DNA of 64,000 bases. It comes from Bacteroidales bacterium. GTDB lineage: Bacteria; Bacteroidota; Bacteroidia; Bacteroidales; UBA932. The notes beneath the pieces were generated by a model, which saw only the letters and a list, made by a program, of their open reading frames with translations, searched no databases and was not told the origin of the DNA. The stretch spans positions 1 through 64,000 of the forward strand of contig JAGAKR010000008.1 in assembly GCA_017625535.1 (NCBI GenBank), written 5' to 3'. The position numbers and the translations under genes are program-made. Of the stretch, positions 13,532 to 21,170 are shown piece after piece (within the stretch, counting starts at the first letter, position 1; every line of letters starts with the position of its first letter).

Positions 13532-13831
13532 ATGGTTTCAGTAGACGGTCTTACAGTAGAATTCAGCGGCACAACCCTTTTCAAGGATATTTCTTTTGTA
13601 ATCAATGACTAGGACAGGATTGCCCTTATGGGGAAAAACGGGGCGGGAAAATCCACCATGCTCAAGATTCTGGCCGGAGTTAAGACCCCAAACAGAGGCA
13701 AGGTTACCGTAACTGACGGGGGCAAGATAGGCTACCTTCCGCAGCACCTTATGGTGGAGAACGGAAGGACCGTATTTGAGGAGGCCTGTCTGGCATTTGA
13801 GCACCTGTTTGAGATTGAGAGGAAGAACTGA
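13532..13831 (+). pseudogene. Truncated ABC-F ATPase remnant with an in-frame stop
   Basis: From ATG 13532 the frame encodes the N-terminus of an ABC-F ATPase (MVSVDGLTVEFSGTTLFKDI), then a TAG stop at 13610-13612. It continues in the same frame with RIALMGKNGAGKSTMLKILA (Walker A) and IGYLPQHL (Q-loop) and ends at TGA 13829-13831. Intact ABC-F proteins have more than 500 residues; only the first 99 codons remain. The TAG sits where a charged residue such as Lys is usual, one base from AAG. The end abuts the convergent EEP gene (1-nt gap at 13831/13832), so the rest was lost by deletion. A degenerate -7 (TATCTTCG, 13498) remains. Confidence 0.85.
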
Positions 13832-16086: not shown

Positions 16087-16248
16087 GTCATCAAAGAAGA
16101 CTACGACAACAAACACGGCGCCCCTAACGCCGCCGCTCCAAAGATCTTCATGAAGTACTTCTTCGTGAACACCAAAACCGGCGAAAAATCCGGCGAAATG
16201 CTCACCATGGTCAGACTCGACGAAGATGCCCCGGCCGACGGCGAGTAA
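16087..16248 (+). pseudogene. C-terminal fragment of an unidentified gene, GC-rich codons
   Basis: The frame from about 16087 reads VIKEDYDNKHGAPNAAAPKI, FMKYFFVNTKTGEKSGEMLT and MVRLDEDAPADGE, then TAA at 16246. Codon choice (GAC, GGC, GCC, ACC) differs sharply from the AT-rich neighbours. There is no start: the upstream sequence is AT-rich and broken by stops. A terminator follows 27 bp later. It looks like the 3-prime end of a gene whose body was replaced at a recombination junction near 16060-16090. Confidence 0.55.
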
Positions 16249-16318: not shown

Positions 16319-19243
16319 TTACTTGAATTTTTCGACTAACCTTTCTATTATTTCTTTATGAGCTGCTGGATGAGTGGTTTTAAATGTTTCAAGTGTACCA
16401 CCTATCATCTTAATACTTGCTCCAGATTCAAGATCTAACTTTTCTAGAATTCTCAGTGTCTCAGGAATCTGTTCGTTATTGTTTAGGTTGTTTGTACAAA
16501 GTGTTGCTACGCCTGTTTTTTGTTCTTCGGATCCATTACTTGCTATTATTCCTAAGTAGTCGAAATTGTCAGCAAAATCGTCTTTATTGTCATTTGTAAA
16601 TGCGTTAATTGCTAATGATAATAAATCTTCAGGAAGATTATTTATGTATTCTGATTTTCGACCTTTAATATCTTCTATTATTAGATTTCTACATAAAGCA
16701 TCGCTGGATATAGACTGAATTAATGAATGTACCTTTTCTTCAGTAATATTGTCTAGTAAGTCTTTGATTTTTCTCTTAGCTGTGTTAATATCAACTGTCC
16801 AGGTATTATTGAGTCTACTAAGCAAGCATCTTCTGATTAGTTCGATACTGAGTTCGTTTGCATAATCATTATCATTAAGGATTGTTGGATTGAATATAGT
16901 GATTGACAATCCTTCATTGGTTAATTTAATAATATGATTTTGTGATGCATCTTTTGCATGTTGATAGCAAGAGTTGATTACCTCATTACTTAATAATCCC
17001 TCTGTAATTCTATATATATCAAAGCATCCGCTTACAAGTCTAAGAAAAATGTTAGGCGTGTTCTGGTATTCTCCGAGGATTTTGAGATTATACCCATTGA
17101 CTCTTCTTTGACCATATATGTTTTCATATATAACCTTGATACTATTTGAATCTTTGAGTTGCTTATTGCCTATTGCGTTAAAAAACGGAAATAGTAAATC
17201 CAGGAATTGTAAAGTTTCTTCTTTTCTCTTGTTGGCAGTTATTAAACCGAATGTATTAAAGAATTTATCATACATTTCTGTGGATATATTCTTTTTATTT
17301 TGGAATATCCACAATAGATTTCTGTATTTAACACTTTCAATTTCGAGTTTAGCTTCTTCTAACAATGTGTCAAATAGATCTTCCGAGAATAGAGCGTTTT
17401 TCTGTTCTTCTGAATATTCGACATCTGTAAAAATCTCATTTGTTTGGAATACGGCTAAAGCTACCTTTGATAATGCTATTGCGTCTTCTCTACTTTGGAA
17501 TGTGCTCAAAACTGCTTTTACAGCAGTGTGATCATTATGGTTTGCTTCTACATGTGCTAATATAAGTTCCTTTAAATGGCTATTTTTATGTCTATTAAGC
17601 TGGTTCGCAAATTGGCACACATGAACATAATCCTTTGATGGTATATTTTTAATGACCATATCAAAAGAATCTTTGTATAATACAGTAATGCTATTAGCTG
17701 ACGTTAATGTAAGATCGCACGTATTAAAGAATTTGCATAGATAAATCAGTCGATTGGTCATTTGATTAATCGATCTGCTATTGATATCGTCTTGTAACTG
17801 CTTTATTGTCAGATCAATGATTGTTTCCGTCTCTGAAGCATATTTGTTGACAAAGTTGATGACAATGCTATCGTCATACGTTCTAATACCTTCAATAACC
17901 TCATTAGGAATGTTGCTGAACTGAGCACCTGAGTTGGTTAGAATGTGTGATATGTCACTTATTTCCGTCTGACTGAAATAAATGTCTGCGCTTCTCATAA
18001 ACGCATCAAGGCTGTCTTTAATGTTGTCATTTGAATATTGATTTTTATCAAATAGTAAATAAGGATTGTTAACTATTGTTTTATAATATGAGGTATACTC
18101 TTCTCTAAGAATTAAGAGTGCGCAAATAATTGCTTGATTCTTATCCGCAAATTCCGTTTCGTACAAACATAATTCAGAAGACAGGTTATTAAACAACTGT
18201 ACAATTCTTCGAGGATTGGTTGCAAATTCTTTTGTCGCTAATGCTAAAGTATCTGAATTGAAGTTTAGTTGGTATCTTTGATTCAATTCTTTTGCAAAGA
18301 AATGCATTTCCGTCGGCTGATGAGGTTTAATGCGGAGTGTAACATTGAAAAATTTTCTCAAAAATTCTTCCTTTTCTTTATCGCATTCTGCATTATTGTC
18401 TTTTATAAAGAGGTTTTTCTTTAATGCCTCGTCGTCTACAGGAATTACAAATACTAAATTATATTCTTCATCACACAAGAAGGTCTTTATGTCTGTAAGA
18501 AGCTGATAAGCCAATGTGTGATGGCACCTGTCGATATTGTCGATAATAATGACTATTCGATCTAAATCTCTTATCGATTTTTCCCCATAACAAACAAATT
18601 CTTTTATCCTTCCAATCCATGTACTATTTGAGAGAGATTTACTTATCATCTCCTTGAAGCAGTTCTCGAATTGTTCTGGAGCAAAAATCATCGGCTTGTT
18701 TAATTGTACCTTCAAACTGCCAATTATTCCACTAAGAGCTGTTATGAGAAGTCCACCAATGGTTAATATGCTGGAAATAGTAAGCTTGTTCTTAAGTTCC
18801 AACGGTAAAACGTTGATAAAAATAACAAGAAAAAGCAAGGCCATGCAAATGATAATTTGCCATCTATTTGATATATATGTTTTGGGCTCAGTCTCGACTG
18901 TTTCAGATTGGTAGAAACGGCTCATTTCTTCTGTCTGTTGAAAACGAAGTTCTTGCTGGACTTTGAGCAGGAACATCCTTCTAAATGAGTCGTTCACATA
19001 TTTCCATGCGTCATATTTTATAAACTTTACCTTTGGGTTATTCTTCTCAATAGAGTTTTGTGCAGTTTTAATTATTGATTATTTACCTGCGCCCCAATTA
19101 CCAAACAAACCTATCGTAAAGACTTTGTTTGTAGGAGCTTTCTTAATCATTTTAACTAATGACTCTGCGTACCCCGAAGTTTTCAAGGTATCGTTCTCAC
19201 CATTTAATATGATTTCATCATCTGGTATGAATTGCCTTTTCAT
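16319..19243 (-). pseudogene. KAP-family P-loop NTPase, interrupted by TAA in Walker A
   Basis: Read from ATG 19243 the frame gives MKRQFIPDDEIILNGENDTL, then FTIGLFGNWGAGK, then TAA (19079-19081, codon 55), then SIIKTAQNSIEKNN, and stays open for 919 codons to 16319. KAP proteins have Ser or Thr at codon 55, so one base (TCA to TAA) removes the Mg2+-coordinating residue. Two membrane segments (about 125-180) lie inside the NTPase domain, as usual for KAP, and Walker B is RIVIIIDNIDRC. The long C-terminal half is helical, without a known domain. It lies 19 nt after the RloB-like gene in one operon. An internal start near 18997 would give a protein without Walker A, unlikely to be an active NTPase. 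Confidence 0.85.
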
Positions 19244-19262
19244 AATATATTTCTTTAGGTAT

Positions 19263-19859
19263 TTACTTTTCTATTCCCAACATCTTAAACATCCTTCCCA
19301 GCTCCGAGAAACTATATCCTCTCTCCTCAGCAGTGGCCATTGACTTCTCTGCATTTGAGATTGCATCGTATATCGATCCGCCCTGCTGCGTGAAGAACTG
19401 GTGCAGAGGATGCTTTCTGAAGAAGTCGGTTGTCTTCATATAGCCGCATTCTTTGCTGAGGTCTGCTTCTACTTCGTTCGAGCGCTTGTACAATTTGGTA
19501 GTGTACCTGAAGTAGTAAAGGAAGAATAGCTCAGTACATCTTTCTGTCTCAAAGAATTCAATGCGGCAATCGATACCTTTCTTCGGTTTTGAGATATGCT
19601 TGCCGTGGTATTTCTTCTTCAGATTGACATAGTCGCTCTTGTTCTTGCCTTCTTTTTTATTATCAAGGTCGATCATACAGTAAACATGATTGTATCCCTG
19701 GTCTATGGCATTCTTGATTTTCAGTTCAAGTTCTGCCATGCTAGTATGCTTCGGATATTGAGGATCAATGTTCTGAAGCGTCCTGAATTCATCTTTCAGT
19801 GAAGTCAGAAAGAAGTATTCAGTAGGACCTTCGCCAATGATGATGAATGTTTCTTTCAT
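19263..19859 (-). CDS. RloB-like TOPRIM-type protein
   Basis: 198 aa. It opens with FIIIGEGPTEYFFLTSL, where Glu10 (GEGPTE) matches the conserved Glu of RloB/OLD TOPRIM folds. MIDLDNK (Asp64, Asp66) supplies the DxD metal site. These features fit the RloB family (Pfam RloB), thought to act as nuclease effectors. It is encoded 12 nt after an OLD/RloA-like ATPase, the usual partner, and 19 nt before a KAP NTPase. Such ATPase-TOPRIM pairs (RloAB, PARIS, Gabija, OLD) are known or suspected anti-phage systems. Effector activity here is inferred. Confidence 0.85.
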   Translation of the reverse strand: MKETFIIIGEGPTEYFFLTSLKDEFRTLQNIDPQYPKHTSMAELELKIKNAIDQGYNHVYCMIDLDNKKEGKNKSDYVNLKKKYHGKHISKPKKGIDCRIEFFETERCTELFFLYYFRYTTKLYKRSNEVEADLSKECGYMKTTDFFRKHPLHQFFTQQGGSIYDAISNAEKSMATAEERGYSFSELGRMFKMLGIEK

Positions 19860-19871
19860 AGGGCTTCATTG

Positions 19872-21095
19872 TTATTCGTTAAGAATAAAAGGTGAACCCA
19901 GAGCCGGTTTCGCTCCAAGTTTTCCTATCTTGTAAGCATTGTATAGTGACTGATTCTTATGTAGGCCATATTTGTCTGCTCTCTTACATGACGATGTCGC
20001 AGTCTCAAAATTCTTCTCTACAAAGTAAATCAAATCTCTCTGCTCGTTTATCAAATCCTCTGCCAGCAAAGATGTCAGGTGCGAGGCAATGATCATCTGT
20101 GATTTATCTGAATTATACAGAAATGCATTCAGGTAGAAGAGAAACAGGTCATAATGCAGGTCATTCTCAGGTTCGTCGAACAAGAAGATGTTATTTCCAT
20201 AAACCATATCATAAAGAAGCCTGGTTTTCTCCAAGAAAGCTATGGTACCTCCGGACTGATTGATGGTTTTCAGATCGAAACTATCTTTACCCGCAACGCT
20301 GGTGAACATAATATCTTTGGTCTTCTCGCCGCTCTGGAGTACAACAGAATCCTCATAGTGGAAGTCCACGATATTGAAGTCAGCCTTCTTGATCATCTGG
20401 AGGAAGAAACTCTTCATCTTTGGATCCTCATCAACCTTCCTCATCATATCCGCGAAAGTCTCGTCAGGATCGTGATAATCGTTGATACCGTGCATAGACT
20501 TCGTAATCCACGCAAAAAGGTCAGAAACAGCCTTTACATCCTCATCAAATGCCACTTTAGCATAAGTGGAGAGGACTGTATGGTTATTCAGAGTGTTGCT
20601 TACAAATGTGTTCTCGGCCTTCTTCTTAATCTCTGCACTGGTTCCGAATGTAATGTTTGCAGCTGATGACTCAGCAACAAACTCACGGGTGTAGAATGAA
20701 GCTTTATAGCCCTTTGGATAGAAAATCAAGGTCTCGCTAAGAATATAATCCTCATTGTATGAAATCTCATAATCATATCTGATTCCATTAACATAGAACG
20801 ACAGTCCCATCTTTGTAGGCTCACCTTTGGCCAATGCAAACGGATGGTAGCAGACAATCTTCTTATTCCTGGTTGACTTTGGTGTGATCAATAATCTGAA
20901 CACCGTCTGCAGAGCATAAAGAATGTTTGACTTACCGGACGCATTTGCTCCGTATAGGATAGCAATCTTGTTAAGCCTTACCTTATCATCTACCATAACA
21001 GAAGCAAAAGAGTCTGTGTTGCCCTTAGCCTCAAAGTTTAATGTCTGTCGATTCTTGATAGAGTAGAAGTTTTCTACCCAAAACTCCCTAATCAT
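19872..21095 (-). CDS. RloA/OLD-like AAA ATPase (AAA_15/AAA_21 type)
   Basis: 407 aa SMC-like ATPase. Walker A is GANASGKS (49-56) in the typical LYGANASGKSNILYAL context. Walker B is FLFDEPE (304-310), followed by the H-loop-like IIASHLTSLL (335-344). The N-terminus IREFWVENFYSIKNRQTLNF is the standard first strand of this family. Such ATPases pair with TOPRIM/RloB nucleases and are thought to sense phage products. It is the first gene of a leftward three-gene operon with its own promoter (21140-21170). AT-rich codon use sets it apart from the core genes and suggests transfer. Confidence 0.9.
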   Translation of the reverse strand: MIREFWVENFYSIKNRQTLNFEAKGNTDSFASVMVDDKVRLNKIAILYGANASGKSNILYALQTVFRLLITPKSTRNKKIVCYHPFALAKGEPTKMGLSFYVNGIRYDYEISYNEDYILSETLIFYPKGYKASFYTREFVAESSAANITFGTSAEIKKKAENTFVSNTLNNHTVLSTYAKVAFDEDVKAVSDLFAWITKSMHGINDYHDPDETFADMMRKVDEDPKMKSFFLQMIKKADFNIVDFHYEDSVVLQSGEKTKDIMFTSVAGKDSFDLKTINQSGGTIAFLEKTRLLYDMVYGNNIFLFDEPENDLHYDLFLFYLNAFLYNSDKSQMIIASHLTSLLAEDLINEQRDLIYFVEKNFETATSSCKRADKYGLHKNQSLYNAYKIGKLGAKPALGSPFILNE

Positions 21096-21139
21096 ATCCT
21101 AAATTTGATTAAAATTAGCCTTATTTCGTAAGTTTTTTA

Positions 21140-21170
21140 CAAAAATAAACGATTTTTCCATGTAAACAAC
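21140..21170 (-). promoter_or_regulatory. Promoter of the RloA-RloB-KAP operon
   Basis: Minus-strand -7 TATTTTTG (21140-21147) and -33 GTTG (21167-21170) are 19 bp apart, matching the Bacteroidota pattern. The leader is about 40 nt. Confidence 0.65.

What the first reader, a model, noticed from the sequence alone, without database searches (positions are those of the whole stretch)
16319..21095. RloA-like ATPase, RloB-like TOPRIM protein and KAP NTPase in one operon: candidate three-part defence system
Gaps of 12 and 19 nt and a single promoter (21140-21170) join an OLD/RloA-type ATPase, its RloB partner and a membrane KAP P-loop NTPase. ATPase-TOPRIM pairs (RloAB, PARIS, OLD, Gabija) and KAP NTPases are each linked with phage resistance, but I know of no described system joining all three. 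AT-rich codon use and decayed gene pieces on both flanks fit a transferred defence island. The KAP protein could be a membrane-disrupting or signalling arm.
Basis: partly seen in the sequence, partly recalled or inferred. Interest (0 to 1): 0.75.

Follow-up and report, generated by a model that had tools for sequence, protein, structure and literature searches.

The report
RloAB defence cassette with KAP gene
Two known anti-virus genes that seem to act as an interchangeable front end for many bacterial defence systems sit here ahead of a third, now broken, membrane defence gene; the trio is real but looks like one combination of a mix-and-match kit rather than a fixed three-part machine.

Summary
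The KAP gene is broken by an in-frame stop in its Walker A motif. The same order recurs, KAP motif intact, in one other Bacteroidales genome (L086). It is not an obligate trio: of 16 loci with this long KAP type 2 have RloAB next to it; the KAP tree rejects the two trio KAPs as sisters (AU p 0.0005) although their RloAs group together; the RloA nearest to L086's has no KAP behind it. What recurs is RloAB as leader: of 112 RloAB pairs examined, 48 have a same-strand ORF within 100 nt downstream, and 20 of the 48 belong to defence families of many kinds (QatA, CBASS, GajA, HamA, SIR2, HsdR, PifA). Close RloAB copies carry different cargo, homology ending near the rloB stop. Best reading: an AbiL-type cassette with its own promoter-like site, onto which a KAP gene was joined. 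New variant of a known kind; the leader-cassette pattern is the interesting part.

The parts
21128..21147 (-). promoter/operator-like site: -7-type box TATTTTTG (21140-21147) overlapping an inverted repeat GTA-N7-TAC (21128-21140), 32 nt before the rloA start
   Evidence: sequence; GTA-N7-TAC is present within 150 nt upstream of rloA in 30 of 116 loci against a mean of about 5 (maximum 12) in 200 single-base shuffles, and 0-9 at the nine other spacings tested. The -7 consensus TAnnTTTG is recalled, not from a call; (sigma-70 consensus) does not cover such promoters.
19872..21095 (-). RloA / AbiLi-like ATPase, 407 aa, Walker A GANASGKS (residues 49-56), DE at 307-308
19263..19859 (-). RloB / AbiLii-like TOPRIM-related protein, 198 aa, motifs GEGPTE (9-14) and DxD (64, 66)
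   Evidence: the relation of RloB to OLD-type TOPRIM domains is from PMC10440598 (passage read)
16319..19243 (-). KAP P-loop NTPase gene, long type (complete relatives about 1000 aa), broken: in-frame TAA at 19079-19081 inside Walker A; two hydrophobic stretches follow it
   Evidence: intact relatives exist (e.g. L076, L086, L114)
16087..16245 (+). 53-codon gene remnant abutting the 3' end of the KAP gene
   Evidence: sequence; no Pfam match

Best explanation
The locus is an RloAB (AbiL-type) defence cassette with its own promoter-like site and operator-like repeat, followed in the same direction by a KAP NTPase gene that is separate defence cargo. Proposed working: RloA, an ABC/SMC-like ATPase, senses infection and keeps or releases RloB, a TOPRIM-type nuclease, giving abortive infection or nucleic-acid cleavage as proposed for AbiL (inferred from the family). 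The cassette also supplies transcription, and because of the short gaps probably translation, to the defence gene right behind it; among related RloAB pairs that gene differs from genome to genome, with the joint near the rloB stop codon. In this genome the cargo is a membrane-inserted KAP NTPase of different base composition, and it is at present disabled by a stop codon, so only RloAB is expected to work. Shown here: gene identities, spacing, recurrence, different cargo behind close RloAB copies, sharp joints, the broken KAP. Inferred: co-transcription, the sensing and nuclease roles, any functional help between RloAB and cargo.
For: Same-order trio in L086. Conflicting histories: RloA of window, L086 and L175 form one clade (SH-aLRT 100), but window + L086 KAPs as sisters are rejected (p-AU 0.0005); the nearest KAP is L114 (60% over 358 aligned positions), without RloAB beside it. 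Different composition: GC3 0.49-0.53 for RloAB, 0.31 for KAP. RloAB leads many cargos: 48 of 112 pairs have a same-strand downstream ORF within 100 nt; 20 of the 48 are PADLOC defence families (17 by direct hit, 3 by 80% or more identity to a hit; 20 others scanned without hit; 8 not scanned). Twelve close RloAB loci (RloA 80-99% identical) include ones before a CBASS cyclase, QatA, GajA, HamA, SIR2-HerA, Thoeris-like and AbiLi-like genes; in 37 of the 38 pairs printed (of 66 possible) DNA homology ends within 57 nt of the rloB stop, the exception being two loci that share cyclase cargo. Asymmetry: 14 of 110 RloA have a same-strand ORF within 100 nt upstream; of 10 of these 14 scanned, 1 is a defence family.
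Against: 28 of 48 tight downstream ORFs had no defence hit or were not scanned, and several look by eye like housekeeping genes; 59 of 112 pairs have no tight same-strand ORF downstream and 5 more lie at contig edges, so RloAB often stands alone, also among close copies (L145 opposite gene, L144 gap 131 nt; L209, 60% RloA identity, opposite gene; L208, 81%, no RloB ORF found). Defence genes cluster in islands, so defence neighbours are expected above the genome average without any functional link; I had no island-matched control. The operator-like repeat was not found before the five RloA of the sister group L157/L159/L161/L162/L164. No expression, structure or phage data. The trio itself rests on two genomes.
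Confidence: 0.57

Rival explanations
1. Chance neighbours in a defence island: RloAB and KAP are two independent defence genes that landed next to each other, with no shared expression or function.
For: KAP and RloAB differ in composition and history; most KAPs of this type stand apart from RloAB (2 of 16 adjacent); the KAP is broken while RloA and RloB are open frames.
Against: Gaps of 12/19 nt here and 1/12 nt in L086 on one strand; RloAB precedes KAP-type genes in 5 further fetched loci (L129, L141, L148, L151, L237); more defence hits among tight downstream than tight upstream neighbours (20 of 48 against 1 of 10 scanned).
Confidence: 0.25
2. A dedicated three-part system: RloA senses, RloB cuts, KAP disrupts or signals at the membrane, each needed.
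For: Same order and short gaps in L086; RloAB beside several KAP kinds: long KAP, QatA, PifA.
Against: 14 of 16 long KAPs lack adjacent RloAB; KAP tree rejects joint descent; L175 keeps RloAB without KAP behind it; RloAB has many other neighbours (onward); KAP broken here.
Confidence: 0.13
3. RloAB is a toxin-antitoxin-like stabiliser or regulator carried with defence cargo to keep it in the population or to control its expression, rather than a defence system in its own right.
For: RloB and AAA partners were placed in a toxin-antitoxin network by PMC10440598 (passages read); operator-like repeat before rloA; leader position.
Against: AbiL is described as a phage abortive-infection pair (PMC10440598 passage); 59 of 112 RloAB pairs have no tight downstream ORF.
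Confidence: 0.05

Closest known systems
AbiL (AbiLi/AbiLii), Lactococcus; RloA/RloB of Campylobacter type I RM loci
   Same: ATPase followed by RloB/TOPRIM-related partner; PADLOC AbiLi 3.8e-57, AbiLii 2.5e-10; rlo genes inside an hsd locus are described in PMC2928727 (one passage read), and RloAB stands directly before an HsdR-type gene in 4 fetched loci
   Different: followed by a KAP gene here; exchange of cargo beyond type I RM did not turn up in the paper searches (mostly listings)
QatABCD (QatA is a KAP NTPase)
   Same: KAP NTPase in a defence operon; RloAB stands directly before QatA in L129, L141, L148, L151
   Different: window KAP is about 1000 aa in complete relatives, matches QatA models only at 0.001-0.002, and has no QatB, QatC or QatD behind it
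PifA (F plasmid T7 exclusion; that role is recalled)
   Same: single KAP NTPase as defence gene; L237 has RloAB directly before a PifA-type KAP
   Different: window KAP has no PifA match at the limit of 0.01
Gabija, PARIS, OLD ATPase-TOPRIM systems
   Same: ABC-type ATPase with TOPRIM nuclease
   Different: RloA's AriA match (5.1e-17) is far below its AbiLi match; RloB is a separate Pfam family

Membership tests
AbiL / RloAB | AbiLi/RloA-type ATPase with Walker A and B | tested here: met
   PADLOC AbiLi 3.8e-57; GANASGKS and DE conserved with L086
AbiL / RloAB | RloB/AbiLii partner encoded directly downstream | tested here: met
   Pfam RloB 1.8e-18 over its cut-off, gap 12 nt
AbiL / RloAB | abortive infection on phage challenge | not testable with these tools
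   bench test needed
QatABCD | QatA-type KAP NTPase | tested here: not met
   best match 0.0011-0.0017 with the 892-aa ORF after the stop; 17.7 bits against an NCBIfam cut-off of 600
QatABCD | QatB, QatC, QatD downstream | tested here: not met
   no ORF of that size and strand follows KAP; the next feature is a 53-codon remnant on the other strand
KAP P-loop NTPase family | KAP_NTPase domain with transmembrane segments between Walker A and B | tested here: met
   Pfam 4.7e-13 on the ORF after the stop, 7.2e-31 by the whole-frame search; two hydrophobic stretches at about residues 68-97 and 99-124 of the piece after the stop, before the IDNIDRC stretch that I take for Walker B
KAP P-loop NTPase family | intact Walker A | tested here: not met
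   in-frame stop at 19079-19081; motif conserved in relatives
Dedicated RloA-RloB-KAP system | the three genes recur together and descend together | tested here: not met
   together in 2 of 16 long-KAP loci; joint descent of the two trio KAPs rejected

The most novel reading that the evidence does not exclude
A clade of RloAB pairs is a general front-end cassette of bacterial immunity: it carries its own operator-controlled promoter, is placed directly ahead of very different defence systems (CBASS, Thoeris, Gabija, Hachiman, Qat, SIR2-HerA, KAP and PifA NTPases, type I RM), and is functionally coupled to them as a shared sensor, regulator or fail-safe that fires when the cargo is defeated. 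The window's RloAB-KAP is one such combination.
Probability: 0.3. Interest if true: 0.8.

Novelty: new variant of a known kind. Interest (0 to 1): 0.5.

Why it matters
Known immune modules are usually catalogued one system at a time. If one ATPase-nuclease pair is repeatedly put in front of unrelated systems, with a sharp joint at the rloB stop codon, then either it guards or controls them, or it is a preferred landing site for defence cargo. Both are testable, and the first would help explain why rlo genes have been seen inside restriction-modification operons. It also warns that neighbourhood-based discovery can take such combinations for new fixed systems.

Tried and rejected
Rejected: (1) 'Short KAPs beside RloB are the same kind as the window's': PADLOC shows QatA with Qat partners behind. 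(2) 'Trio inherited as one unit in window and L086': AU test p 0.0005. (3) Window KAP as QatA or PifA. (4) Trio on viruses or plasmids: no confirmed match for KAP, RloA or RloB in viral contigs (pattern-based scans that can miss relatives); three partial matches (20% of the query) to KAP on haloarchaeal plasmids. A first genome-contig scan with the single KAP sequence found nothing; the second with a two-row alignment gave 14 loci. (5) Solved structures by sequence: none matched KAP or RloB, only chance-level hits for RloA.

Literature, open-licence PMC papers only: RloB with KAP in no paper; 'RloAB' in 2 (listing seen: one on unrelated proteases, one on Helicobacter islands); RloB with phage in one; searches with AbiL, Gabija, Qat, island, TOPRIM and KAP NTPase terms listed no title or abstract start on this combination, several lists being capped. 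PMC10568477 (two passages) does not discuss RloA; PMC3387028 (two passages) mentions a plasmid KAP NTPase with possible phage exclusion, not RloAB.

Counting limits: of 97 RloB rows I fetched 80 (left out: the window's own copy, one fetched earlier as L109, and 15 others, mostly fragments or low-score rows); of 46 rows I fetched 40. Eight fetched loci gave no RloAB pair of ORFs. ORFs were called mechanically, so some neighbours may not be genes. The Fisher test (8 of 13 against 4 of 60, p 3.5e-5) used a clade picked after seeing the tree, rows are not independent, and L145, whose RloA is only a fragment but whose RloB is of the same kind, was counted among the 60; moving it gives 8 of 14 against 4 of 59 (not recomputed).
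Full report
What is there. On the minus strand lie an RloA/AbiLi-type ATPase (19872-21095, 407 aa), an RloB/AbiLii-type protein (19263-19859, 198 aa) and a KAP NTPase frame (16319-19243), with gaps of 12 and 19 nt. Pfam and PADLOC agree on the first two (AbiLi 3.8e-57; RloB 1.8e-18; AbiLii 2.5e-10) and Pfam names the third (KAP_NTPase 4.7e-13). The KAP gene is interrupted by an in-frame TAA at 19079-19081, inside Walker A; one search finds the same stop with a profile of relatives. In the alignment with 13 relatives the motif is nearly invariant, so intact copies exist; whether the stop is real or an assembly error cannot be told without reads.

Composition. GC3 is 0.488 for RloA, 0.533 for RloB and 0.308 for KAP; 25 other ORFs of at least 300 aa in the window, outside 15.4-31 kb, average 0.549 +- 0.047. 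The pair and the KAP gene therefore look as if they came from different sources. Two hydrophobic stretches follow the Walker A motif of the KAP protein, as expected for this family (recalled).

Is the trio found elsewhere? A scan of genome contigs with an alignment of two KAPs gave 14 loci. One, L086, a Bacteroidales MAG, has a tyrosine-recombinase-like ORF (named by eye, not scanned), then RloA (46% aligned identity to the window's; 44% by BLAST), RloB (47%) and a KAP with intact motif, gaps 1 and 12 nt. Counting window, L076-L089 and L114, 16 loci carry this long KAP; 2 of 16 have RloAB next to it and one more (L076) has a different RloAB about 4 kb away with other genes between. The KAP type is rare: 2 of 344 genomes of the order at E up to 1e-30, one of them the window's own. 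No confirmed match in viral contigs.

Do the parts descend together? RloA of the window, L086 and L175 form one clade, with L086 and L175 nearest each other (SH-aLRT 100 and 99, quick tree). The KAP of the window is nearest to L114 (60% over 358 positions) and L076 (56%), and 41% to L086. A tree in which the window and L086 KAPs are sisters is rejected (log-likelihood 32.3 lower, p-AU 0.0005; only 5 of 18 inner branches of that tree are starred). L175, whose RloA is 74% identical to L086's, is followed at 121 nt by a reductase-like gene (named by eye) and has no KAP behind it. So the trio was put together at least twice or taken apart repeatedly.

What RloAB sits in front of. In 299 genomes of the family, 75 have an RloB match (97 rows), and KAP-family matches were mapped in the same genomes. 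Besides the window's own, four places had RloB directly before a KAP; these are QatA genes (L090-L093; PADLOC finds QatA, QatB, QatC in L090 and QatA, QatC, QatD in L093; L091 and L092 by layout and identity). Other Qat-like loci without RloAB also occur (L094-L097 by layout, L094 scanned). I then fetched 80 of the 97 RloB places and 40 of the 46 rows of a second search with a related RloA in 344 genomes of the order. Of 112 RloAB pairs with both ORFs, 48 have a same-strand ORF within 100 nt downstream, 28 a looser one, 31 an opposite one and 5 lie at an edge. Of the 48, 20 are defence families: QatA (L129, L141, L148, L151), CBASS cyclase (L138, a short ORF, and L207), Cap15 effector (L157), AbiLi-like ATPase with a DUF3226 partner (L139), GajA (L142, L149, L188, L242), HamA (L150), SIR2 (L159, L206, the latter with HerA), type I HsdR (L218, L228, L231, L236) and PifA-type KAP (L237). 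Seventeen are direct PADLOC hits (two of them scanned under the overlapping loci L090 and L093), three (L141, L149, L151) rest on 80% or more identity to a hit; 20 more were scanned without hit and 8 were not scanned. Outside this sample, a Phocaeicola vulgatus plasmid has RloAB overlapping a ThsB_TIR gene, then a SIR2-STALD gene and another TIR gene, i.e. Thoeris-like. Plasmids of Bacteroides fragilis, Persicobacter and Acinetobacter carry RloAB without tight defence cargo.

Leader position. Upstream of rloA 14 of 110 pairs have a same-strand ORF within 100 nt; of 10 of these scanned, one is a defence family (TIR, L194). In a subclade of 14 RloA (chosen after seeing the tree), 8 of 13 pairs away from a contig edge have defence cargo against 4 of 60 other family pairs (Fisher p 3.5e-5, rows not independent).

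Sharp joints. Among twelve close RloAB loci (RloA 80-99% identical), 38 of the 66 pairs were printed; 37 of the 38 lose DNA homology within 57 nt of the rloB stop, and the exception, L138/L207, shares cyclase cargo and runs on for 492 nt. Most begin 1-140 nt before the rloA start; L141/L142 (-278) and L144/L150 (-663) share more. L141 and L142 are 99.3% and 98.0% identical in RloA and RloB, yet one precedes Qat and the other Gabija genes. Against the pattern: L145 and L209 have an opposite-strand neighbour, L144 a 131-nt gap, L208 no RloB ORF, and L143's neighbour has no family match.

Operator-like site. GTA-N7-TAC occurs within 150 nt upstream of rloA in 30 of 116 loci; single-base shuffles give about 5 (maximum 12 in 200 rounds), and the nine other spacings from 3 to 12 give 0-9. 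Related loci inflate the count. The site is present in the window, L086, L175 and all twelve close loci of the preceding paragraph, but in none of the five loci of their sister group (L157, L159, L161, L162, L164). In the window it overlaps a TAnnTTTG-like box (that consensus is recalled). It could be an autoregulatory operator; no binding partner is known.

Mechanism. RloA probably acts as ATPase sensor/holder and RloB as TOPRIM-type effector. PMC10440598 (passages read) links RloB to OLD-type TOPRIM domains, to type I RM operons and to AbiLii, and describes AbiL as abortive infection by the TOPRIM effector. PMC2928727 (one passage read) reports rloA and rloB inside a Campylobacter hsd locus. 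QatA, a KAP in a defence operon, binds DNA, appears to form heptamers or octamers and affects the range of phages rather than being needed for all defence (PMC13279940, passages read). PMC3387028 (passage read) names phage exclusion at the membrane as a possible role of plasmid KAP NTPases. By analogy the long KAP is most likely a range-widening or stand-alone membrane NTPase; this is inference. In the window it is not expected to work.

Verdict. In the library searched I found no paper that joins RloB with KAP, and the listings showed none on RloAB as such a cassette (listings, several capped; passages only where stated).

Noticed in passing
G000:C19:5015-6906 (L108): The window's genome has a second RloAB pair of another RloA clade, near an HsdR gene on the opposite strand.
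   Followed up: partly
L141:2182-6940: RloAB followed by a Qat-type operon in which the QatA frame also holds an in-frame stop ('1 TGA'; two ORFs).
   Followed up: no
L114:4466-8703: The KAP nearest to the window's overlaps an AbiH gene (Pfam AbiH 1.7e-24) directly downstream and follows a methylase-type gene: another KAP-defence pairing, without RloAB.
   Followed up: partly
L089:3852-11983: An archaeal long KAP (partial ORF) sits between a DUF6079 protein and a DNA methylase in one tight gene row, possibly a BREX-like context (the BREX link is recalled).
   Followed up: no
L202:7001-11509 (Phocaeicola vulgatus plasmid pPvulCL10_1): RloAB overlapping a Thoeris-like TIR / SIR2-STALD / TIR set.
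   Followed up: partly
window 13628-13828: ATG-led 67-codon fragment of an ABC-transporter ATPase (Pfam ABC_tran 2.7e-9), a likely gene remnant.
   Followed up: partly
L143:3464-5032 and L144:3442-4905: Genes behind close RloAB copies without a PADLOC hit: a 522-aa protein with no Pfam match, and a DUF6119 protein before a cytosine-methylase-like gene (the latter named by eye); candidate unrecognised defence cargo.
   Followed up: partly
phage records MK422453 and MN534320: RloA relatives (29% and 26% identity) lie in a Klebsiella phage and a Lactococcus phage record.
   Followed up: no
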